Shown one piece after another: positions 2,718-30,616 of a stretch of 33,309 nt of DNA (position 1 is its first letter; every line of letters starts with the position of its first letter). The DNA is from Solirubrobacteraceae bacterium (lineage in GTDB: Bacteria > Actinomycetota > Thermoleophilia > Solirubrobacterales > Solirubrobacteraceae). Position numbers and translations under genes: made by a program. Under the pieces are notes generated by a model. It had not been told where the DNA came from, ran no database searches, and worked only from the letters and a program-made list of their open reading frames with translations. The stretch spans positions 1 through 33,309 of the forward strand of contig JASHQV010000193.1 in NCBI GenBank assembly GCA_030038955.1. The letters are read 5' to 3'.

Positions 2718-2748
2718 CGAGTGATCCTTCCTTCTAGCGGGCATGGTG

Positions 2749-2780
2749 CTCGATAATCGTGAAGCATATTCCGATAATCT
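2749..2780. promoter_or_regulatory. Putative IclR operator pair upstream of the minus-strand VOC/Rdh-like operon
   Basis: Exact CGATAATCG at 2751-2759 and CCGATAATCT at 2771-2780, upstream of the GTG at 2717. Confidence 0.55.
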
Positions 2781-2887
2781 TAGGACCGCCCCGGCCTTCG
2801 AGTCAAGCCGATCGCGAGTTGGCAAGCGGGACTTGCGAGCGCGTGAATTCGCTTGACAAGCCCTAAAGACGCACCCTACTCTAATAT

Positions 2888-2916
2888 GATCGGTAATCAG
2901 GGTTCGATAATCGGAG
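2888..2916. promoter_or_regulatory. Putative IclR operator pair upstream of the plus-strand methyltransferase/LLM operon
   Basis: ATCGGTAATCAG followed by GGTTCGATAATCGGAG (exact core 2905-2913). Confidence 0.6.
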
Positions 2917-6211: not shown

Positions 6212-6246
6212 AATCGTTTATCGGGCTATGATATCCGATTATAGTT
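6212..6246. promoter_or_regulatory. Putative IclR operators plus minus-strand -10 box of the FAD oxidoreductase gene
   Basis: AATCGTTTATCGGG and TCCGATTATAGTT (each 8/9 to CGATTATCG); perfect TATAAT on the minus strand (6243-6238) overlaps the second site. No good -35 found. Confidence 0.5.
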
Positions 6247-6301
6247 CATTAGGGGCTTGTTATTCCTGGGTCGAGCGAGCCCGGACAGAGGATCCAAACA
6301 C

Positions 6302-6369
6302 TTGACAGCCAGCCGGGGCAAAAATTAGACTGCTGTTGTTTCTCGAACGATAAGGTTCGATAATCGGCA
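6302..6369 (+). promoter_or_regulatory. Promoter TTGACA-N18-TAGACT and downstream IclR operator for the ABC importer operon
   Basis: TTGACA 6302-6307, TAGACT 6326-6331, then CGAACGATAAGGTTCGATAATCGGCA; GGTTCGATAATCGG (6354-6367) is identical to 2901-2914. Confidence 0.6.
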
Positions 6370-6661
6370 GTCCCGCCTAGCCGAGGGTGGGATGGCTTTG
6401 GCGGATCACGCTCTCGTACAGGAAAGCCTCTGGATGACGACATCCTTGATCTCGATTCGGGGCGGAGTGCCCTTCCTGCTCAGCTGCACCGAAAGCGGCA
6501 CTCATCTGAAGACGTGGAGCCTTCCGCAGGCAAACGATCGGGGACCCCAACGGCGGGCCAGCCTTCGCACAGACGTTTCTGCAAGGGCCGGCCGCCGTGC
6601 TCAGGATGAAGCCGCTTTGGCACCTCACCCTTTGGCGCGTGGGCGCTTCGCATAGCACTGA

Positions 6662-11448: not shown

Positions 11449-12540
11449 CTAACCCCACACTCGCCGCGCGACGGCCGCCACCAGCCGGAGCTTCTCCTCC
11501 TGCGTGCGCTCGGTTATCTCGTTGCCCATTGCCACCGAGGCAAAGCCGCACTGGGTCGCGACCGCCATCGTCTCCTTGGGATGGAACTTAGACGCATCCT
11601 CCACGCGGGCGATCAGATGATCGAACGACTCCAGCTCGTTGGTCTTGGTCGATACCAGCCCGAGCACGGCGGTCTTCTCCTCGGGCATGTCCGCGAGCGC
11701 CTCAAACGTTCCCGCTCGCTCATCGTCGTACTCGAGCACGAAACGGTCGAAGTTTGACGCTTTGGCGAACAGCTGCTTGGAGATGCTCTCGTATCCCCCG
11801 CCGGCGATCCATCGGCTCTGGTAGTTGCCGCGGCACAGGTGCAGCGCGAAGTCGACACCGTCAGCGTCGGCCACGCTGTTGATGATCTCGATGCCCTCGC
11901 CGAGGACGCGGTCGGGCTCGATGCCAAGCGAGGCCCAATGCTCGCGCATTACGGGATCGACCATCTCGCAGAGGTCGGGCGCGTCGATCTGGATGTAGCG
12001 GCAGCCGTGAGAGGCGAGAACGTGCGCCTCCTCGCGGACCAGATCGGCCGCGTCGCGGAACATGTCGAACGGGTCGGGATAGACCTCGCCGCTGCGCTCT
12101 GGCGTGTACATGGCATATGTCATCAGCGGACTGGGCAGGGTGACCTTCAGCGGCTTGAAGGCACGCGCGCGCGAGTACGCGAACTCAGGCGGGGTGAGCA
12201 TCTGCTTGCGCGTTAGCTTCCCGGTCACCGACTCGGGGCTCTGGAAATCGATGTCGTTGCCATCGGCGGCGTGAAATGGGACCGGTTTGGCCGGGACCTC
12301 GGAGAGACCCTCGACCGCGGTGATGAGCTGATCGAAGAATGTGAAGCGACGCATCTCGCCGTCGGTCACGACGTCCATGCCCACACCCTCCTGGAGCGCG
12401 ATCGCCTGGTCGACCGCCCGATCCTCAACGCGCCTGAACTCGGCCGGCTCAAGCCGACCGACCTCGAACGCCTCCCGCGCCTCACTAAGGTAACGCGGGC
12501 GTAGGAGTGACCCAACGACGTCTGCTCGATAAGTGCCCAT
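11449..12540 (-). CDS. Core-MetE-like (COG0620-type) zinc methyltransferase
   Basis: VVGSLLRPRYL...VVTDGEMRRFTFFDQ; HLCRGN (HxC) and ATQCGFAS (Cys) match the positions of MetE-type zinc ligands; about 363 aa, i.e. catalytic domain only. Confidence 0.87.
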   Translation of the reverse strand: MGTYRADVVGSLLRPRYLSEAREAFEVGRLEPAEFRRVEDRAVDQAIALQEGVGMDVVTDGEMRRFTFFDQLITAVEGLSEVPAKPVPFHAADGNDIDFQSPESVTGKLTRKQMLTPPEFAYSRARAFKPLKVTLPSPLMTYAMYTPERSGEVYPDPFDMFRDAADLVREEAHVLASHGCRYIQIDAPDLCEMVDPVMREHWASLGIEPDRVLGEGIEIINSVADADGVDFALHLCRGNYQSRWIAGGGYESISKQLFAKASNFDRFVLEYDDERAGTFEALADMPEEKTAVLGLVSTKTNELESFDHLIARVEDASKFHPKETMAVATQCGFASVAMGNEITERTQEEKLRLVAAVARRVWG

Positions 12541-12614
12541 GATCTCCTCGGGTCTCGTGTGTTTCGGCGACCCTACAGCGGTATTTCGGGCTCGTCAATA
12601 AAATCGAACCTCAC

Positions 12615-12630
12615 TGTTCGATTAGCGGAC
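12615..12630. promoter_or_regulatory. Putative IclR operator upstream of the minus-strand core-MetE-like gene
   Basis: TGTTCGATTAGCGGAC; CGATTAGCG is 8/9 to CGATTATCG. Confidence 0.45.
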
Positions 12631-14049: not shown

Positions 14050-14793
14050 TTACCACATCTTGGACTGGCGCTGGAAGAACCAGCCAGCAGTGGGCCCGTC
14101 TTGGTCGAGCGTGGCAAGGTAGATCGAGACATCGGCGCCTTCGGCCGCGGACAAAGGCGCGAACGGCGCCCCCATGTCGGTGCGGCAGTAGCCGGGGTCG
14201 GAAGCGTTCACCAGCACGCCGGCCTCCCGCAGCTCGCCGCCCATCAGCGCCGTGAGCGCGTTGAGGGACGCCTTGGTGACGCGGTAGCCGCCGTGTCCGG
14301 GGTAGTGGTCCTCGCGGCGTGAGTCAGCCATGCGCTCGAACTGGCACAGCCCGGTCGTCACGTTGACGATCCGGCCGTAGCCGTTGGCGACCATCGCCGG
14401 CACGACGAGCTGGATCAGCCGCCAGGCCGCAATCACATTGATCTCGAACATCGTTCGGAGATCGTCGAGATCGGCCTCCAGCGCCCCGTGCTCTTCGTCG
14501 AGCTCCGCCGCAGCGTTGTTGACGAGGACGTCCAGCCGCCCGTGCCGGTCCTGGATTTCCCGCACGAGCGCTTGTGCCCCCTTCGCATCAGTCAGTTCGA
14601 GGGCATCGCCGAGCACGGTGGCGCCGGTCTCCTGGATCAGTGTCGCCGCGACGCTCGAGGCAAGCTCGCCGTCGCGGCCGGTCATGTGAACGACGAGCCC
14701 AGCCTTGGCTAAGCCCCGAACGATCTCCGTGCCGATCCCGCGGGTTGCCCCCGTGACCAGCGCAATTCGCTGAGCGTCGGACCCGACGTTCAT
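14050..14793 (-). CDS. Short-chain dehydrogenase/reductase (classical SDR)
   Basis: ALVTGATRGIGTEIVRGLAKAG, NNAA, YRVTKASLNAL catalytic motif; ATGA overlap with the upstream aldehyde dehydrogenase. Confidence 0.92.
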   Translation of the reverse strand: MNVGSDAQRIALVTGATRGIGTEIVRGLAKAGLVVHMTGRDGELASSVAATLIQETGATVLGDALELTDAKGAQALVREIQDRHGRLDVLVNNAAAELDEEHGALEADLDDLRTMFEINVIAAWRLIQLVVPAMVANGYGRIVNVTTGLCQFERMADSRREDHYPGHGGYRVTKASLNALTALMGGELREAGVLVNASDPGYCRTDMGAPFAPLSAAEGADVSIYLATLDQDGPTAGWFFQRQSKMW

Positions 14794-16274
14794 AGGACTA
14801 CGTTCACCACCTTCTCCTCGGTGTGGGCCCGAATCGCCGCCTCGCCCAGCTCACGGCCGACGCCGCTGGTCTTCATGCCCCCCCAGGGCAGCCGGGGATC
14901 GGGCGCGCCCCAAGCGTTAACCCACACGGCGCCGGCACGGATGCGGGCCGCGATCGTGTGCGCCTTGGTCACATCCTGCGTCCACACGACCGCGGTCAGG
15001 CCGTAGCGGGTGTCGTTGGCCAGAGCCACGGCCTCATCGGGATCGTCGAACGGGATCACGGTACCCACAGGACCGAAGATCTCCTCGCGGGCGATCGTCA
15101 TGTCGTTGGTGCCCGCGAAGATCGTCGGCTCGACGAAATAGCCCCGTCGCTCCAGCCGCTTACCGCCGGTCACCAGCTGCGCGCCCTCCTCCTCGCCGGA
15201 ACGGACGTAGCCCAGCACCCGGTCCAGCTGTGCCTGGTTGATCAGCGCTCCCATCGTCGTCCCTTCGGCAAACGGATCACCGACCACGATGTCTCGTGCA
15301 AATGCCTCCAGCCCCTCGACGACCTGGTCCTGCACCTGGCGCTGGACGAAGATCCGACTGCCAGCCGCGCACACCTCGCCGGCGTTGGCGAACACCGAGA
15401 TCGCCGCCGTGGGGATCGCAACGTCCAGGTCCGCGTCGGCGAAGACGAGCTGAGGAGACTTCCCCCCGAGCTCCAGCGTCACGGGCTTGAATGCCGCCGA
15501 CGCGATCTCGGCGATCCCGCGCCCCACCTCGGGACTGCCGGTGAACGACACCTTGTCGATACCGGGGTGGCGCACGAGCGCCGCGCCCGTGCTGGAACCC
15601 GGTCCGGGCACGACGTTTACCACGCCATCGGGCAGACCGGCCTCGTCGAGCAGCGAGACGAGGTGAAGCGTCGAGAGCGGGGCATCCGCCGGCGGCTTGA
15701 CCACCAACGTGCAGCCGCAAGCTAGCGCCGGGGCGAGCTTCCAGGAGGAGATCATCACCGGCGCGTTCCAAGGCGTGATCGCGGCGACGACACCGATCGG
15801 CTCCCGGCGCGTGTAGCAATGCCGAGAGCGCCCCATGAAGTCCGGCACCGGAATCACCTGACCGCCGATCCGGTCCGCCCAGCCGGCAAAGTGACGAAAC
15901 GTCTCGGCCGCCATTGGCACGTCGATATTCCGCGGATCGCCGACCGGCTTGGCGATCTCCAGCGCCTCGAGCTGCGCCAGCCGATCGGCGTCACGCTCGA
16001 TCAAATCGGCGATGCGCCACAACAGCCGGGCGCGTTCGGTACCGGCCATTCGTCCCCACTCGTCGCTCTCGAGGGCAGCACGGGCGGCGGCCACGGCGCG
16101 GTCCACATCAGCCTCCGAGGCGCGCGCCACCTCCGCGATTTGCTCTTCCGTCGCGGGGTCAAAGACCGGAAAAGTTGCTCCTGCCTCGCCGTTTTGCCAG
16201 CTACCGCCGATGAACAGGCCCAGCTCGGGTAGTGCGATCTGGAACCTCCCGCGGGTGATGCTCAGGGCGCTCAT
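14790..16274 (-). CDS. Aldehyde dehydrogenase (NAD(P)+-dependent)
   Basis: ITPWNAPVMISSWKLAPALACGCTLVVKPP, VTLELGGKSPQLVF, NAGEVCAAGSRIFV. Confidence 0.95.
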   Translation of the reverse strand: MSALSITRGRFQIALPELGLFIGGSWQNGEAGATFPVFDPATEEQIAEVARASEADVDRAVAAARAALESDEWGRMAGTERARLLWRIADLIERDADRLAQLEALEIAKPVGDPRNIDVPMAAETFRHFAGWADRIGGQVIPVPDFMGRSRHCYTRREPIGVVAAITPWNAPVMISSWKLAPALACGCTLVVKPPADAPLSTLHLVSLLDEAGLPDGVVNVVPGPGSSTGAALVRHPGIDKVSFTGSPEVGRGIAEIASAAFKPVTLELGGKSPQLVFADADLDVAIPTAAISVFANAGEVCAAGSRIFVQRQVQDQVVEGLEAFARDIVVGDPFAEGTTMGALINQAQLDRVLGYVRSGEEEGAQLVTGGKRLERRGYFVEPTIFAGTNDMTIAREEIFGPVGTVIPFDDPDEAVALANDTRYGLTAVVWTQDVTKAHTIAARIRAGAVWVNAWGAPDPRLPWGGMKTSGVGRELGEAAIRAHTEEKVVNVVL

Positions 16275-16316
16275 GCCGACGCACTCCTTATTAGCCTGAT
16301 ATCGAACAGCTCTGCA

Positions 16317-16331
16317 CGGTTATCGCACAAC
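16317..16331. promoter_or_regulatory. Putative IclR operator between the ALDH operon (-) and the ABM-like gene (+)
   Basis: ACGGTTATCGCACAA; CGGTTATCG is 8/9 to CGATTATCG. A degenerate TGATATCGAAC lies nearby at 16298. Confidence 0.4.
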
Positions 16332-16431: not shown

Positions 16432-16740
16432 ATGCCCGACCACAAGCTGGCCGCTGAGATCGTCCGGATCCGTCCCAAGAACGCCGCTTGCGAGCAGCGG
16501 GCCCTGGAGATCCGCGATGAGATGGTGCAGTCCTATCGCGACCAGTTCGCAGGCTTCGTCAGCTGCCGCCTGCTACACACCGAGGACAGCGGCGAGTGGG
16601 TTGACCTTTGGTACTGGAAGACCAAGGGCGACGCCGAGGAGGCGCTCGCCAACGCCGACCGCACACCCCTGTTCCAGGAATGGACGACGCTCGTCGACAT
16701 GGTCAGCTTCGAGTGGGCAGAGGTCTTAGCCGACCACTGA
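16432..16740 (+). CDS. Small dimeric alpha/beta-barrel-like protein (ABM/antibiotic-biosynthesis-monooxygenase-like)
   Basis: 102 aa, IVRIRPKNAACEQRALEIRDEMVQ...VSCRLLHTEDSGEWVDLWYWKTKGDAEEAL; fold assigned by resemblance only. Confidence 0.55.
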   Translation: MPDHKLAAEIVRIRPKNAACEQRALEIRDEMVQSYRDQFAGFVSCRLLHTEDSGEWVDLWYWKTKGDAEEALANADRTPLFQEWTTLVDMVSFEWAEVLADH

Positions 16741-16757: not shown

Positions 16758-17483
16758 CTAGGGAAGCACCGCCAGCTCGTCCCCGAACAATGAGCGAGCG
16801 ACGCTCTCGGCGAGGTCCAACAGCCTCGGCAGGTGCTCGGCGATCCCGGATGCTCTGGTGGTCGGGATCAGAATGGCGAGACTTGCCACCGCCTGCGATC
16901 CGTCGCGCACAGGAACCGCCAGCCCATACACCTCGTTCTGTAACTCGTCGTGCGAGATCGCGTACCCGAACTGGCGTACCGTGTCCAGCTGGCTGCCCAG
17001 CCGGTCATCTCCTCCAGCGGCCGAAAGGATCCGATCGATCGTACCCTGCTCCATGAACGCTAGCAGGGCCCGTCCGCTCGCCCCCAGCGTCAGCGAATGG
17101 CGCGATCCGATTCGGTGCTGCACCCGGACAACATGGGCAGTACCCACCACCTGCTCGAGCACCACCGCGTCGTCTCCGTCTGGCACGTGGAGCACGATCG
17201 TCTCGCCAATCTCGGAGGCCAGCGCCGCCATGTCACCGGCGGCCGCGGCACGCAGTTCGGGTTCAACGCGCGCGGCGAGCCTGACCAAGAGCGGCCCGGG
17301 CACATAGCCGCCCTGCTGGCGGATAATGAACCCGCGGCGATGCAGCGTGCTGAGCAGGCGGTGGATCACGGTCCGATTGAGACCAAGCGCGCGGGATAGC
17401 TCAGCGGCGGTCATCGGACCTGACTCGCTCAGCTCCACCAGAGCTGCCAGAGCCTCGTCGGCGGTCTTGGAGATCTCGGCCAT
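16758..17483 (-). CDS. IclR-family transcriptional regulator
   Basis: N-terminal HTH SGPMTAAELSRALGLNRTVIHRLLSTLHRRGFI; C-terminal effector domain LGASGRALLAFMEQG...GYAISHDELQNEVYGLAVPVRDGSQAVASLAIL. ORF open to 17510. Confidence 0.93.
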   Translation of the reverse strand: MAEISKTADEALAALVELSESGPMTAAELSRALGLNRTVIHRLLSTLHRRGFIIRQQGGYVPGPLLVRLAARVEPELRAAAAGDMAALASEIGETIVLHVPDGDDAVVLEQVVGTAHVVRVQHRIGSRHSLTLGASGRALLAFMEQGTIDRILSAAGGDDRLGSQLDTVRQFGYAISHDELQNEVYGLAVPVRDGSQAVASLAILIPTTRASGIAEHLPRLLDLAESVARSLFGDELAVLP

Positions 17484-17631
17484 GCTGAGACAGGATATTA
17501 CGGGCGGCACCCGAAAGCCGGGCCCACCAGCACGATTCTGGGCATCTTACGACTCAGGTGGTTCCTTTGATTTTCGATGAGAAGAACTACAGTACATGCC
17601 GAGTCCGTTTGTGCTAGTTTCGATCAGTAGT

Positions 17632-17646
17632 GAACGATTACCGGAC
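17632..17646. promoter_or_regulatory. Putative IclR operator just upstream of the FAH-led operon and divergent from the IclR gene
   Basis: GAACGATTACCGGAC; CGATTACCG is 8/9 to CGATTATCG, 6 bp before the FAH ATG. Confidence 0.4.
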
Positions 17647-20355: not shown

Positions 20356-21531
20356 ATGACGATCAGATCTACCCGCGTCCCGCGCGAGGTGGCGCGTGCC
20401 GAGGCGGTGGGGAGCCTACTGCGCAATCCTCGGATCAGTGAGCAGCTGAAGTACCTGTTCGAAGGCCAGACGACAGCTCTGCGCCCACTCGTACTGCGCG
20501 AGCGACCACAAGAGATCGCCACACTTAATCGGCTGGCCGACAAGACGATCGCCGGCCTTGTTCAGCATCAGATCGATGCTGGCCTAGATGTGGTCAGCGA
20601 TGGGGAAGTACGCCGGACGAGTTTCCTCAGTTCGTTCTACGATGCCGTGGAGGGGTTCCGGGCCCCACCGGAGCGGATGTCGGTCCACGACGATGAGGGC
20701 AACCTCATCTATGAGACGTTTAACGACCCGGTTGTCGCCAAACGCCTGCACAAGACGTACAGCCCGGCTGCCGAGGAGGCAACCTTCATGCGCTCGCTGA
20801 CCGATTACCCATTCAAGATCACGCTTCCGGCTCCCTCCTACTATTTCACGGACTTCGTCCCGATCGGCGAGTCGAGCTATAAGCACAAGCTCGAGTTCGT
20901 CGAGGATGTGTTGCACATCACCAAGCAGCTCGTAGCTGAGGCGATTGCCGCGGGCGCAACCTGGATTCAGTTCGACTTTCCGCTCTACCCGGCTTTGGTT
21001 GCCACCTCGATGAGCGAGTATGGATCGATGATCGAGCAGGTCGGTGAGAGCACGGACTGGCTGCTCGACAAGGCGCTTCAGGTCGACCGGGCCGTCACGG
21101 AGGACATCCCCGACGGCGTGATGGTCGCCCTTCATCTCTGTCGAGGCAACCTTCCAGGCGGCTTCTGGAGCGGATCGCTGGCACCAATCGCCGAGCGCAT
21201 GTTCAGCGAGCTCCCGCACAAGCGCTTCCTATTCGAGTGGGAGGACCTCTCCCGTGATGGCGACTACGAGCCGATCAAGTACGTGCCGCGCGACAGGATC
21301 ATGGCGATGGGCGTAGTCAGCACCAAGACCCCGAACGTCGAATCAGAGGACGAGATCGTGGGACGGATCGAAACGGCCAGCCAGTACCTCGACGCGGACC
21401 AGCTGGCGCTGTGCACGCAGTGCGGTTTCGCATCACTGTTCGCCGATCATCTAGTCGAAGCCGAAGACGCACAGTGGCGCAAGCTCGAGCTGATCGGGCG
21501 GGTAGCTGACCGGGTGTGGGGAAGCAGCTGA
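20356..21531 (+). CDS. Core-MetE-like (COG0620-type) zinc methyltransferase, second complete paralog
   Basis: AEAVGSLLRNPRISEQLK...DVVSDGEVRRTSFLSSFYDAVEGF; LHLCRGN and LCTQCGFAS zinc-ligand motifs. Confidence 0.88.
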   Translation: MTIRSTRVPREVARAEAVGSLLRNPRISEQLKYLFEGQTTALRPLVLRERPQEIATLNRLADKTIAGLVQHQIDAGLDVVSDGEVRRTSFLSSFYDAVEGFRAPPERMSVHDDEGNLIYETFNDPVVAKRLHKTYSPAAEEATFMRSLTDYPFKITLPAPSYYFTDFVPIGESSYKHKLEFVEDVLHITKQLVAEAIAAGATWIQFDFPLYPALVATSMSEYGSMIEQVGESTDWLLDKALQVDRAVTEDIPDGVMVALHLCRGNLPGGFWSGSLAPIAERMFSELPHKRFLFEWEDLSRDGDYEPIKYVPRDRIMAMGVVSTKTPNVESEDEIVGRIETASQYLDADQLALCTQCGFASLFADHLVEAEDAQWRKLELIGRVADRVWGSS

Positions 21532-25105: not shown

Positions 25106-26341
25106 TCACACCGGCACCTCCCCAGCCGACCGCGGGTCGTCCAGCCCGGCGGCGTTGCGGAGCTCCGTGGCCTTATCGGTCCGCTCCCACGTGAAGTCCG
25201 GCTCCTCACGCCCGAAATGGCCATACGCAGCGGTCTTCTGATAGATCGGCCGATGCAACTTCAGATACTCACGAATCGCCGCCGGACGCAAATCAAAATG
25301 CTGCTCAACCAACTCCAACAACCGCGCCCGCCCAACCCTCTCGGTCCCAAACGTCTCAACCATCACCGACAACGGACGCGCCACCCCAATCGCATACGCC
25401 ACCTGCAGCTCAACCCGCTCAGCCAACCCCGCCGCAACCAAGTTCTTCGCCACATACCGAGCCGCATACGAAGCCGAGCGATCAACCTTCGACGGATCCT
25501 TACCCGAGAACGCCCCACCACCATGTCGCGCCATCCCACCATACGTATCAACAATGATCTTCCGGCCCGTCATCCCACAATCCCCCATCGGCCCGCCAAT
25601 CACAAACCGACCCGTCGGATTCACCAGAAAACCGCGATACAGCCTCTGAGCATCAAACAGCCCCGCCGGCAGCACCGGCTCGACCACATGCTCCCACAAA
25701 TCCTCCTTGATCAACGCCTCCGACCCATCCCGATGCTGCGTCGAGACCAACAGCTTCACAACCTCCACCGGCCGACCATCGACATAACGAACCGTCACCT
25801 GCGTCTTACCATCCGGACGCAAATACGGAACGATCCCCTCCTTACGCACATCCGCGAGCCGCTTCGCCAACCGATGCGCCAACGAGATCGGCAACGGCAT
25901 CAACTCCTCCGTCTCACTCGTCGCATAGCCAAACATCATCCCCTGATCACCCGCGCCAACCAAATCCAGCGCGTCCTCGTCACCCGGATCAGTCCGCGAC
26001 TCAAACGCCCGCTCCACCCCCTGCGCGATATCCGGAGACTGCTTATCAATCGTGCTGACCACCGCACACGTATCGCAATCAAACCCGTACGTCGCATCGG
26101 TATAGCCAACCCGCCTGACCGTCTCCCGCGTCACCTCCTGGACATCCACATACGTATCAGTCGTGATCTCCCCCGAAACCACCACCAAACCCGTATTCAC
26201 CAACGTCTCACACGCCACATGCCCCAACGGATCATCCCGCAACACAGCATCCAACACACCATCAGAGATCTGATCAGCAATCTTATCCGGATGCCCCTCC
26301 GTAACCGACTCCGAGGTGAACAGGAACTCGTTATCAGCCAT
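25106..26341 (-). CDS. metK: S-adenosylmethionine synthetase (methionine adenosyltransferase)
   Basis: [27 protein letters not shown]...[12 protein letters not shown]...[23 protein letters not shown]. Confidence 0.98.
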
Positions 26342-28100
26342 CTCGTCTCATCTCCTGATCCTTATGAGTCACCTCCAACAGATACGCGACCACCACGTTC
26401 CGGTCACCGAGCGTCACGTGATATGCGTCCGAGAGCTCCTCGACCCGCGAGATCTGGGTCGCCTGCTCGTCGAACAGCTCGTGGAACGCGAAAAACCCAA
26501 AGTCCACAACCCGCGAGCCGAACCCCCGCACATCGAGCTGCTCGACCGTCCGTCGCTCCCCGATAATCGATAGTTGCAGTATATAGGCAATCCCATCATC
26601 AGCCAAAGCATCGGGTAGCAGCCCAATCAGATGGTCAATCAGGTTGCGTCCCCAGAAATCGAGCGGGCGGTGAGTCGGCGCGTGCTCGAACGGATCGACC
26701 GGGGTCTGGAACAGGCTGGCGACGATCACGTCGTAGCGCTCGTCGGGCCGCCACGGGAACAGATCGACGGCGTCCGCGCTCACGCGATCGGCGACACCGT
26801 TGCGGAAGGCGTTGGTAAGAGTGTTAGCCACCGCGGCGTGATCGATGTCGATCGCGTGCACGTGCGTGGCGCCGTTGAGTGCCATCTGCACAGTCAGCAG
26901 CCCGCTTCCGCAGCCGATGTCGAGGCAACGCTGGTGCGCACCGACGCCCTCGCGGAACAGGTACTTCCACACCAGGAAGCTGCCCTGCGTGGGAACGAAC
27001 ACCCCGGGTTCGATCGACACATCGGGGAAGTCGAGCGGGAACAGCTGCCTCCCGCGCCCGTCACGCCAGGGCTCGAACGCCGGCGGGGCGGCGTCCGCCG
27101 CGTCGCGTCCGGGGGTGACCAGCACCGCTTCCCGCCTGCTTCCCGGCTTGGTGCCGGCCAGCGCCGCTCGCGCCGCGGCAATGTGCTCGGGACCCACGCC
27201 GCAGCAGCCGCCTATGATCTGCGCCCCTTCCTCGCGCCAGCGAAGCGCGAGCTCGGCGTACTCGGCGCCGCCCGTGGCCAGCTCAGAGCGCCAACCGCCC
27301 ACCGACAGGTAGCCGAGGTTGGGATACGCGCCGAGTGGCAGATCGGTGAAGTCGCGCAGCCACGAGACCATGCCGGGCACATGATCGGGGGGCACACAGT
27401 TCACCAGCAACGCACCCACGCCCATCTCCTCGAAGCGCCTGGCCGCGCGTCCGAAGGCATCGCCCTCCGGGCCGCCCCAGTGCTCGCCGTACACGCCGCA
27501 CACACCGTGGCGGCAGCGACGGAAGCTCAGCCAGACTGGGAGCCCCGTAGCGAGCAGACGCTCAACGGTGACATAGGTCGAGCTGCGCACCAACGATAGG
27601 GTCTCGAGCAGGATCAAGTCCGGCGGCTCGTCTTCGAACGCGCGCGCCAACAGGCGAATCGTCTCGTGGCCATCCGGGGTGTCCACGTCTCCGTTGAGGC
27701 TGAAAGCCACCGCCGCCCCGTCGCCGCGTCCGACCTGATCGGCGGCGTCCCGCGCGAGCCGGACCCCCTGACGAGCCACGTCCATCCAATGCACCGGCTC
27801 GGTCGTGCGCCCGGCGAGCTGCAGATCGCCCTGGCGCACCGCCGTGGCCAGGCCCCAGGTGTCGGTCGTCAGCACGTCGCAGCCGGCGTCCGCGTACCGC
27901 CGGTGCACCGCCCTGACGCGCTCCGGGTCGGCCACGACCGCGGAGACGCCCCACAGGTGCTCCTCCACCTCAGGTCGCGATCCCGACACGCCGATCAGCT
28001 CGGTGCCGATCGCGCCGTCGAGCACCACGCAACGCTCGCTCGCGATCAGCTGCGCAATGCGCGCATATCCTCCCGCCGTTCTCGGTGCCGGTATCGCCAT
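26334..28100 (-). CDS. Fusion protein: homocysteine S-methyltransferase domain + class I SAM methyltransferase domain
   Basis: N-terminal half: [13 protein letters not shown]...[11 protein letters not shown] (zinc GGCCG motif). C-terminal half: [37 protein letters not shown]. 8-nt overlap with metK. Confidence 0.9.
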
Positions 28101-28229: not shown

Positions 28230-28529
28230 TCGGGCTGGTTCTAGCTGCATGCTGGCCCCCAGCGGTGTCCGTCACACTCGTTGATCTGCCACCAGAGTGG
28301 GAGGTTCAGTCAACTAGACAGGGGTGCTATCGGCTGCGCGAGCTTAGTGTTTCGTTGCCGTGGACGCGACTGCCGGCCCGCTGGACGCCGTCTCGCGGCG
28401 CGTGGGCGTCGCGATTCTGGACGCCGCGATCGTCTTGCGCCCAGCCTCGTTGGCTGCACACCCGGCACCCGCGGAAGCCGCCGGCTGAGCGCTCGCCCCA
28501 CGTCGCGGTCGGGCGTATGCTCGCCGCGT

Positions 28530-29462
28530 GTGAGCCCCGTACAGGTGGACGACCTGCGGCAGATCCTGGCTGAGCTCCAGCAGCTTGAGCGCGAGCTCGT
28601 CGAGCAGCGCTACCTGCGCCGCTCGGACGGCATCGAACAGGTGCGAGAGGGACTTCGCCGGCTCGGCGAGATCGGATCGCCAGCCGGAATCATCTCCCGC
28701 TCGGCCGCGGAGCTCGCGACCAGCGGCAACTTCGCACTGGTGCTGGTCAGCCGCATTGCGCACGGCCGGATCTACCCCCAGGCCCTCTGGTCGCCCGACG
28801 ACGACGTGCGGCGCGAGGAGCTGCTCGCGATGCTCGCAGCGCGGACGATCCGACTCTCCTATCCGCTGATCGAGGCCGAGGTAGCTGAGCACCATCGACC
28901 GGCCGTGGTGTCAGTGACCGAGAGCGGTCCGCGCGCCTGCCGCGAACTCGTCGAGGCGTTCGCATGGAGGACGTACGCCGTCGGCCACCTCATGCTCGAG
29001 GGCCGCACGATCGGGCTGATTCACGCCTCATGTCCCCAACATGGAGAGGATGTCGACGAGCTCGACCTCGAGCTCGTCACGCTCTACGCCGACGGCCTGG
29101 GGCACGTGTTCGAGCGCGCGGTGCTGCGCGAGTATCTGCGGCACCAGCGACGGGTACTAGAGTCCGCCGGCCACTGGATCAGCGCGAACATGACCGAGCT
29201 GTCGGCGCTGATGGCCCCCGCAAAGATCGGCACGGCCAGCGATGGCGACCGCGAGCGCGACGTACTCACCCCGCGCGAGCTCCAGGTCATGCGGCTGATC
29301 GCTCAGGGTCGCTCCAATCGCGACATTGCCGGCTTGCTCGTCGTCGCCGAGGGCACGGTCAAGTACCACGTCAAGAACATCCTGCGCAAGCTCGATGCGC
29401 GCAGCCGGACCGAGGCGATCTCGCGCTATGTCCACCTCTACGGGGCTCCCGGCAGACCATGA
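28530..29462 (+). CDS. LuxR-family regulator with N-terminal GAF-like region
   Basis: C-terminal LTPRELQVMRLIAQGRSNRDIAGLLVVAEGTVKYHVKNILRKLDARSRTEAI. Likely GTG start at 28530; ORF open from 28281. Confidence 0.87.
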   Translation: MSPVQVDDLRQILAELQQLERELVEQRYLRRSDGIEQVREGLRRLGEIGSPAGIISRSAAELATSGNFALVLVSRIAHGRIYPQALWSPDDDVRREELLAMLAARTIRLSYPLIEAEVAEHHRPAVVSVTESGPRACRELVEAFAWRTYAVGHLMLEGRTIGLIHASCPQHGEDVDELDLELVTLYADGLGHVFERAVLREYLRHQRRVLESAGHWISANMTELSALMAPAKIGTASDGDRERDVLTPRELQVMRLIAQGRSNRDIAGLLVVAEGTVKYHVKNILRKLDARSRTEAISRYVHLYGAPGRP

Positions 29463-30616
29463 CCGCGGACGGTCAGGTGGTCGACGATGCGATCGGGCGT
29501 CAGCTCAATCGCCGGATCGAGGAGGCGACGGGCAGGGCCCGCCGTGCACTCGGATGGGTCGACGACGACGGACGAGACAACGGTCGTGACGCGATCGCAA
29601 CGCTCATCGAAGCGCTCCACGCCGAGCTCTCGAAGGCCGGGGATGACGGTGCGGAGCGAGCCCAGGTCGAGGCGCACGACGGCGAGCTCAAGCGCCTGGA
29701 GCGGCGCTACCGGACGCGGTTCGACGCGCTCAGGGATGTGGACGTGGCCGTCGCCTCGCTGCGCCAGATCACCGTGCCCGACGCGATCCTTGCCCGCGCC
29801 CCGCTTGAGCTGTGCCAGCATTCGGGACTCGACCGGGTCGTCCTGAGCCTCGTCCGCGATCGGCACCTCGTGGCCGAGGCCGTCTACTTCCGCGGGGACC
29901 CAGTGGGAGCGGCCAAGGCGCTCGAGGCACTTCGTGATGCTCCGCCGCGCCTCGAGCATCCGCTGCTTGAGACCGATCTGCTGCGCCGCCGTCGCACCAC
30001 GATCGTGACCGACGTCCAGATCGATCGCCGTCGGCATGGGGCGATGGCGAAGATCATGGGTTGGCACGGTTATCTCGTCGCGCCGCTGCTGGTTGGGGGT
30101 GACTTGCTCGGGGCGATCCATGCCGACACCGGCCTCGACGGTCGCGCCATAGACGTGCTCGACGGCGACATCGTGTGGACCTTCGCACGCGGCCTCGCCG
30201 ATGCCTACGAGACCACCTCCCTGCGCCGCTCGCTGCGACGCCAGCGCGAGGAGATGGGCAGGTTCGTGGAGTGGCTCAGTGCGCGGGCAATCGAGCTCAG
30301 CAACACCTCGATCGAGCTGATCCCCGAGCAGACCTCGCCGCCCGATCCGCCCGGCAAGCTCGAGCTGGCCGCGGGCCAGGAGGGCACCGACGACCGCCTC
30401 GTGTTTTGGGACCTGCTGACTCGCCGGGAGCTCGACGTCCTGCGCCTAGTCGCACGCGGGAAGACGAACGGCGCGATCGCGGCGCAGCTGGTGATCTCGG
30501 AGGCGACAGTCAAGTTCCACGTGGTCAACACCCTCCGCAAGCTGCGCGTCTCCAGCCGGGCCGAGGCCGTTGCTCGCTACCACCGCCTGATGCGCGCCGG
30601 CCGCCGCCAGCCCTGA
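29459..30616 (+). CDS. LuxR-family regulator with N-terminal GAF-like region (second of tandem pair)
   Basis: C-terminal LTRRELDVLRLVARGKTNGAIAAQLVISEATVKFHVVNTLRKLRVSSRAEAV; ATG overlaps the TGA of the first regulator (ATGA). ORF open from 28964. Confidence 0.87.
   Translation: MTADGQVVDDAIGRQLNRRIEEATGRARRALGWVDDDGRDNGRDAIATLIEALHAELSKAGDDGAERAQVEAHDGELKRLERRYRTRFDALRDVDVAVASLRQITVPDAILARAPLELCQHSGLDRVVLSLVRDRHLVAEAVYFRGDPVGAAKALEALRDAPPRLEHPLLETDLLRRRRTTIVTDVQIDRRRHGAMAKIMGWHGYLVAPLLVGGDLLGAIHADTGLDGRAIDVLDGDIVWTFARGLADAYETTSLRRSLRRQREEMGRFVEWLSARAIELSNTSIELIPEQTSPPDPPGKLELAAGQEGTDDRLVFWDLLTRRELDVLRLVARGKTNGAIAAQLVISEATVKFHVVNTLRKLRVSSRAEAVARYHRLMRAGRRQP

What the first reader, a model, noticed from the sequence alone, without database searches (positions are those of the whole stretch)
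2749..2916. Four tandem operator-like palindromes in the divergent VOC-operon / methyltransferase-operon promoter
TCGATAATCGT (2750-2760), CCGATAATCT (2771-2780), TCGGTAATCAG (2890-2900) and GGTTCGATAATCGG (2901-2914). The core CGAT-A-ATCG is a perfect odd palindrome. On the plus side a TTGACA (2853-2858)-N18-TACTCT (2877-2882) promoter candidate sits just upstream of the site pair, and the GGAG of the ribosome-binding site (2913-2916) is embedded in the operator edge. From memory, the IclR-family PcaR box in Pseudomonas is very similar (GTTCGATAATCGCAC); this should be verified.
Basis: partly seen in the sequence, partly recalled or inferred. Interest (0 to 1): 0.65.

Follow-up and report, generated by a model that had tools for sequence, protein, structure and literature searches.

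The report
Paired IclR operators controlling catabolic genes
The short repeats in front of two back-to-back operons are two docking sites for the gene cluster's own IclR-type regulator, and the same paired site occurs before most operons of this degradation cluster and of its relatives, so it is a well-supported new example of an ordinary kind of switch.

Summary
All four quoted strings are at the stated positions. They form two tandem double operators, not four independent palindromes: centres 2755/2776 (VOC side) and 2888/2909 (methyltransferase side), each 21 bp apart. The third string (centre 2895) is probably read out of register; its TGATCGG is the inner half-site of a box centred at 2888. 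A motif learned only from relatives of the cluster in other genomes (consensus GTYCGATAATCGRAC), applied blind to the window, finds seven such pairs. All lie before genes of the catabolic cluster (VOC, methyltransferase, DAO, ABC transporter, MetE-like, ALDH, FAH), all at exactly 21 bp; shuffled intergenic sequence gives 0.0005 on average. TTCGATAATCG occurs twice in the 3.6 Mb genome, both times in this window. The same paired motif accompanies orthologues of the window's IclR protein in related genomes and in two alphaproteobacteria. It matches the published PcaR/PcaU/PobR operators and the IclR-family rule of tandem sites 18-22 bp apart. Best explanation: cooperative binding of the cluster's IclR regulator, probably repressing until a pathway metabolite binds. 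The link to this protein is well supported but comparative; repression and ligand are inferred. New member of a known kind; interest modest.

The parts
2748..2762 (.). Operator box VOC-proximal, centre 2755 (GCTCGATAATCGTGA)
   Evidence: Score 15.1, p 6e-6 with a matrix from other genomes; 21 bp from the next box
2769..2783 (.). Operator box VOC-distal, centre 2776; overlaps predicted -10 TAAGAT of the VOC promoter
   Evidence: Score 13.5, p 1.9e-5; promoter match
2777..2806 (-). Predicted VOC promoter TTGACT-N18-TAAGAT
   Evidence: 9 of 12 consensus matches; shuffles give 0.2 on average
2881..2895 (.). Operator box methyltransferase-distal, centre 2888: strong inner half (GATCGG), weak outer half.
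   Evidence: Pair score 22.8, p 3e-7 at 21 bp; inner half 9.3, outer half -1.5
2902..2916 (.). Operator box methyltransferase-proximal, centre 2909 (GTTCGATAATCGGAG); right edge overlaps the GGAG ribosome-binding site
   Evidence: Score 18.0, p 6.7e-7; one of two places in the genome within 1 mismatch of GTYCGAWWWTCGRAC, the other at 12616-12630
2853..2882 (+). Candidate methyltransferase promoter TTGACA-N18-TACTCT (weak -10)
   Evidence: Read directly; not listed by the promoter scan
6212..6247 (.). Tandem operator before DAO1, centres 6219/6240
   Evidence: Pair score 31.9 at 21 bp, best in the window; one of three double operators in the genome
6334..6369 (.). Tandem operator before the ABC transporter operon, centres 6341/6362, downstream of TTGACA-N18-TAGACT (6302-6331)
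12595..12630 (.). Tandem operator before MetE-like gene (11449-12540), centres 12602/12623
   Evidence: Pair score 22.0, p 3e-7
16293..16328 (.). Tandem operator between ALDH (14790-16274, -) and small ORF 16432-16740 (+), centres 16300/16321
   Evidence: Pair score 20.1, p 3e-7; orthologous ALDH promoters in other genomes carry it too
17611..17646 (.). Tandem operator in the IclR/FAH divergent region, centres 17618/17639
   Evidence: Pair score 21.3, p 3e-7; also in the FAH/IclR region of G377 and G429; G026 has a 20-bp pair there
16758..17483 (-). IclR-family regulator, proposed to bind these operators
   Evidence: Pfam HTH_IclR and IclR_C above cut-off; best NCBIfam match PcaR/PcaU/PobR subfamily but below cut-off

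Best explanation
The region 2748-2916 holds two tandem IclR-type operators, one for each divergent operon. Each is a pair of 15-17 bp palindromes (GTYCGATAATCGRAC) with centres 21 bp, two helical turns, apart. The inner half-sites are mostly strong and one outer half is often degenerate, so each operator has three or four good half-sites. The IclR-family protein encoded at 16758-17483 probably binds each pair as two dimers or a tetramer on one face of the DNA. Where promoters can be guessed, the pairs cover the -10 and start region, so the most likely mode is repression relieved by a catabolic intermediate. It does this at seven promoters of the catabolic cluster. Shown by sequence: motif, pairing, spacing, concentration in the cluster, conservation with the IclR orthologues. 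Inferred: the binding itself, tetramer, repression, ligand. The confidence given is for 'tandem operators of this IclR protein'; for repression specifically it is about 0.6.
For: De novo word counting in 37 upstream regions of the orthologous clusters of four other genomes, window excluded, gives CGATAATCGGA as top word (25 matches vs 2.2 expected). The derived palindromic matrix is GTYCGATAATCGRAC, with most promoters holding two sites 21 bp apart. Applied blind to the window it finds seven promoter-region pairs at exactly 21 bp and no comparable 21-bp pair elsewhere (next best score 11.0). Shuffled intergenic regions give 0.0005 pairs on average, maximum 1 in 2000; permuted matrices give 0.008, maximum 3. 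The 21-bp peak recurs in G026, G022, G377 and G429, one 21-bp pair precedes the IclR gene of G693, and pairs at 20-22 bp flank IclR, FAH or VOC genes in Devosia crocina and Pseudorhodobacter, whose IclR is 44-45% identical. Genome-wide the double operator is confined to this window. The IclR recognition region LGxNRTVxHRLLxTL is conserved in the four aligned orthologues. In the 11.8-36 kb stretch of G026 the IclR gene is the only regulator among the ORFs found.
Against: No binding or expression data. The loose 32-bp pattern at 3 mismatches also occurs 0-3 times per strand in many relatives without an orthologue, apparently by chance, so presence in a genome is not by itself diagnostic. Some strong single matches lie inside genes (18415, 20300, 21030, 26565). 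At the MetE-like gene a TTGACG sits at the outer edge of the pair (12598-12593, minus strand, by eye), which would suit activation rather than repression. The methyltransferase was not found in the other clusters, so its pair has no orthologous promoter to compare with.
Confidence: 0.88

Rival explanations
1. Same operators and same protein, but the IclR protein acts mainly as an activator, or as activator at some promoters and repressor at others, as described for PcaR.
For: PcaR switches between repression and activation by operator position (PMC12455658); the MetE-like promoter may have the pair upstream of its -35 (sequence).
Against: At the VOC and ABC promoters, where a sigma-70-like promoter is detected, the pair covers or follows the -10; in most orthologous promoters the proximal box is within about 50 bp of the start codon.
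Confidence: 0.3
2. The sites belong to a different regulator encoded elsewhere in the genome.
For: Several IclR proteins share this operator class; LuxR-like ORFs lie at 28281-30616 of the window (read) and a LuxR-type gene at 13612-14700 of L033.
Against: The motif tracks the IclR gene across shuffled gene orders and two phyla; the operator is of IclR group-1 type; the C. arvalis cluster has no other regulator among the ORFs found.
Confidence: 0.07
3. The four strings are four independent palindromes as read, with the right-hand pair 14 bp apart.
For: As a single palindrome, centre 2895 scores somewhat better than centre 2888 (7.9 vs 4.8).
Against: 21 bp recurs in most orthologous promoters, 14 bp only sporadically; the inner half of the 2888 box scores 9.3.
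Confidence: 0.1
4. Chance similarity in an AT-richer intergenic region.
For: The intergenic region is less GC-rich than the window (0.52 vs 0.65).
Against: Composition-preserving shuffles and permuted matrices do not reproduce it; independent conservation.
Confidence: 0.01

Closest known systems
PcaR of Pseudomonas putida (IclR family, pca regulon)
   Same: Operator GTTCGATAATCGCAC shares GTTCGATAATCG with 2902-2913; the regulator is an IclR protein of catabolic genes
   Different: The window's protein matches the PcaR/PcaU/PobR model at 74 bits against a cut-off of 285; the cluster encodes VOC, ALDH and FAH enzymes rather than recognisable pca genes, so the inducer is unlikely to be beta-ketoadipate (inference)
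PcaU and PobR of Acinetobacter baylyi
   Same: Motifs TTTGTTCGATWATCGMACAMA and TTGTCCGATSATCGGACAR, with an additional external half-site; here too a palindrome plus at least one strong extra half-site
   Different: Here the extra half sits in a second box centred 21 bp away that is a full palindrome in some promoters; the spacing of the PcaU third box could not be compared in detail
IclR-family tandem-site regulons of Suvorova and Gelfand 2021 (PMC8222616)
   Same: Group-1 consensus and tandem sites 18-22 nt apart in 94 orthologous groups
   Different: Half-sites end in CGA/TCG as in the NGTYCRAW4TYGRACN subgroup but with an odd W3 centre; whether this orthologous group is in their tables was not checked (supplements not available)

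Membership tests
IclR-family regulators | N-terminal IclR HTH plus C-terminal effector domain | tested here: met
   PF09339 35.2 bits (cut-off 22), PF01614 72.6 bits (cut-off 24)
IclR group-1 operator (GKTYCRYW3-4RYGRAMC type) | Palindrome with GTYC/GRAC-type half-sites around an A/T centre | tested here: met
   De novo matrix GTYCGATAATCGRAC against the published consensus; inner positions vary from the general consensus as in the PcaR box
IclR tandem-site regulon | Two sites with centres 18-22 bp apart | tested here: met
   21 bp in seven window pairs and 20-22 bp in the relatives
PcaR/PcaU/PobR subfamily (TIGR02431) | Score above the curated cut-off 284.75 | tested here: not met
   74.4 bits, best family match but far below cut-off
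PcaR/PcaU/PobR subfamily (TIGR02431) | Control of beta-ketoadipate pathway genes | tested here: inconclusive
   Cluster encodes VOC, ALDH, FAH, CMD, LLM, DAO and MetE-like enzymes; no pca-specific model passed its cut-off among the ten proteins tested against NCBIfam; not all genes tested
PcaR/PcaU/PobR subfamily (TIGR02431) | Operator of the PcaR/PcaU type | tested here: met
IclR tandem-site regulon | Direct binding and ligand response | not testable with these tools
   Needs EMSA, footprint and transcript data

The most novel reading that the evidence does not exclude
The operators define a regulon of a previously uncharacterised IclR orthologous group that controls an undescribed ring-cleavage-type catabolic pathway found in several related actinobacterial genomes and, in part, in Alphaproteobacteria, with a PcaU-like operator retained although the regulator lies outside the PcaR/PcaU model and the pathway is not recognisably the beta-ketoadipate one.
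Probability: 0.5. Interest if true: 0.45.

Novelty: new member of a known kind. Interest (0 to 1): 0.32.

Why it matters
It gives a testable seven-promoter regulon for an otherwise unannotated catabolic cluster and links its scattered operons (VOC, methyltransferase, DAO, ABC transporter, MetE-like, ALDH, FAH) into one pathway. Finding the inducer of this one protein would point to the substrate. The mechanism itself is an established IclR-family arrangement.

Tried and rejected
A first EM motif search with a free site number drifted to a compositional motif and was discarded; the fixed-number iteration gave the motif reported. A loose 3-mismatch double-operator search in 146 relatives was too permissive to use as a presence/absence test. 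Rfam found no RNA element in the window. A literature search for the gene combination found nothing, and one for IclR with Conexibacter found nothing relevant. The single site at C86:5-19 lies at a contig end and was not assigned to a gene.

Full report
What is there. The window is one complete contig (C45) of a 3.6 Mb, 494-contig draft genome of 83% completeness. The four strings, the TTGACA/TACTCT hexamers and the GGAG are all at the stated coordinates. The region lies between a VOC-family gene on the minus strand and a methyltransferase gene beginning with ATG at 2922.

Is it more than chance? TTCGATAATCG occurs exactly twice in the genome, both times in this window, at 2903 and at 6356. 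With one mismatch allowed there are 13 places against 1 for the reversed control, and 4 of the 13 are in this window, which is under 1% of the genome. GTYCGAWWWTCGRAC within one mismatch occurs at two places, both in this window (2902-2916 and 12616-12630). The double operator, two boxes 21 bp apart with up to three mismatches in all, occurs at three places in 3.6 Mb: 2750, 6214 and 6336 of this window, with no control match.

Orthologues of the regulator. The IclR protein (16758-17483) has few close relatives. In its family 3 of 146 genomes hold one at more than 55% identity, counting its own; a search of the class added G377 and G429 (59-60%) and one of the phylum G693 (47%). In the four closest genomes (G026, G022, G377, G429) the gene lies among homologues of the window's FAH, CMD, VOC, ALDH, LLM, ABH, DAO2, NmrA-like and ABC genes, in differing order and not all present in each stretch read; the alphaproteobacteria share FAH, CMD and VOC, with ALDH homologues. 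In G693 only the IclR and weak ABC homologues were found.

Footprinting. I took 37 upstream regions (7.8 kb) from G026, G022, G377 and G429, leaving the window out, and counted all 11-letter words with two mismatches. Iterating a palindromic matrix gave nnGTYCGATAATCGRACnn, and most promoters held two sites 21 bp apart.

Blind scan of the window. With that matrix the window shows seven pairs at exactly 21 bp: 2755/2776, 2888/2909, 6219/6240, 6341/6362, 12602/12623, 16300/16321 and 17618/17639. All are in promoter regions of the catabolic cluster; the next best 21-bp pair scores 11.0 against 19.2 or more for these. Shuffling the intergenic sequences gives 0.0005 such pairs on average, maximum 1 in 2000 trials, and permuted palindromic matrices give 0.008, maximum 3. 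The observed count under the same intergenic limits was 6, because the DAO1 pair crosses the limit I had set.

Re-reading the third site. By itself centre 2895 scores 7.9 and centre 2888 scores 4.8. But in the relatives the pair spacing is 21 bp in most cases (20 or 22 in a few), and 14 bp occurs only sporadically. Decomposing 28 pairs into half-sites shows the two inner halves mostly strong (means 7.2 and 7.9) and an outer half often weak (means 3.2 and 6.0). The 2888 box fits that pattern, with an inner half of 9.3 and an outer half of -1.5. I therefore read the right-hand operator as 2888/2909. This is an inference that a footprint would settle.

Mechanism. IclR proteins bind as dimers or tetramers, and many are predicted to bind tandem sites 18-22 bp apart, about two helical turns (PMC8222616). 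PcaU, PobR and HmgR operators carry an extra half-site, required for binding in the PcaU case. The present operators combine a palindrome with at least one strong extra half-site in the 21-bp register. On the VOC side TTGACT-N18-TAAGAT (2806-2777, minus strand) runs into box 2776; on the ABC side TTGACA-N18-TAGACT (6302-6331) is followed by the pair. Both place the operator over or after the -10, as expected of a repressor. At the methyltransferase gene the TTGACA is perfect but the -10 is poor, and box 2909 runs into the GGAG. At the MetE-like gene a TTGACG touches the outer edge of the pair (by eye), so activation there cannot be excluded. PcaR is reported to switch mode with operator position (PMC12455658). 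I put repression with release by a pathway metabolite at about 0.6; the ligand is unknown.

Known or new? The PcaR box GTTCGATAATCGCAC is confirmed in the literature, and the PcaU and PobR motifs are near-identical. The window's protein is an IclR member by Pfam, but scores 74 bits against a cut-off of 285 for the PcaR/PcaU/PobR model, so I do not file it there. It works like them. The finding is a new member of a known kind, with a predicted regulon of seven promoters in an uncharacterised catabolic cluster. The substrate is unknown.

Noticed in passing
6363-6661: About 300 nt separate the operator pair of the ABC transporter operon from the listed start (TTG 6662); no Rfam family matches there. 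Either a long leader or a misplaced start.
   Followed up: partly
16432-16740: Small plus-strand ORF (102 aa) divergent from ALDH, without a Pfam match, conserved at 68% in G022 beside the MFS and LLM genes.
   Followed up: partly
L021 1051-2106, 3073-3480, 6157-6723: The Conexibacter arvalis cluster also holds a RibB/RibA-like protein, a RidA-family protein and a flavin reductase; with the LLM and alpha/beta hydrolase genes this resembles a Rut-type two-component module. Substrate not determined.
   Followed up: partly
L033 15290-16570 and 2652-3746: The G429 contig has a styrene-monooxygenase-A-like gene and a histone-deacetylase-family gene near the cluster.
   Followed up: no
window 11449-12540 and 20356-21531; 25106-28100: Two MetE-like genes inside the cluster, with a fused homocysteine S-methyltransferase/methyltransferase and an ORF that reads like SAM synthetase nearby, suggesting methyl-group handling in the pathway.
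   Followed up: no
G000 C86:5-19 (L008, L051): Single GACCGATTATCGACC at a contig end, outside the cluster; the neighbouring large ORF ends at 48 and the gene it might control is off the contig.
   Followed up: partly
window whole: Close IclR orthologues are absent from the other genomes of the same genus that were searched (best 34%), so the cluster is patchy and may have been acquired.
   Followed up: no
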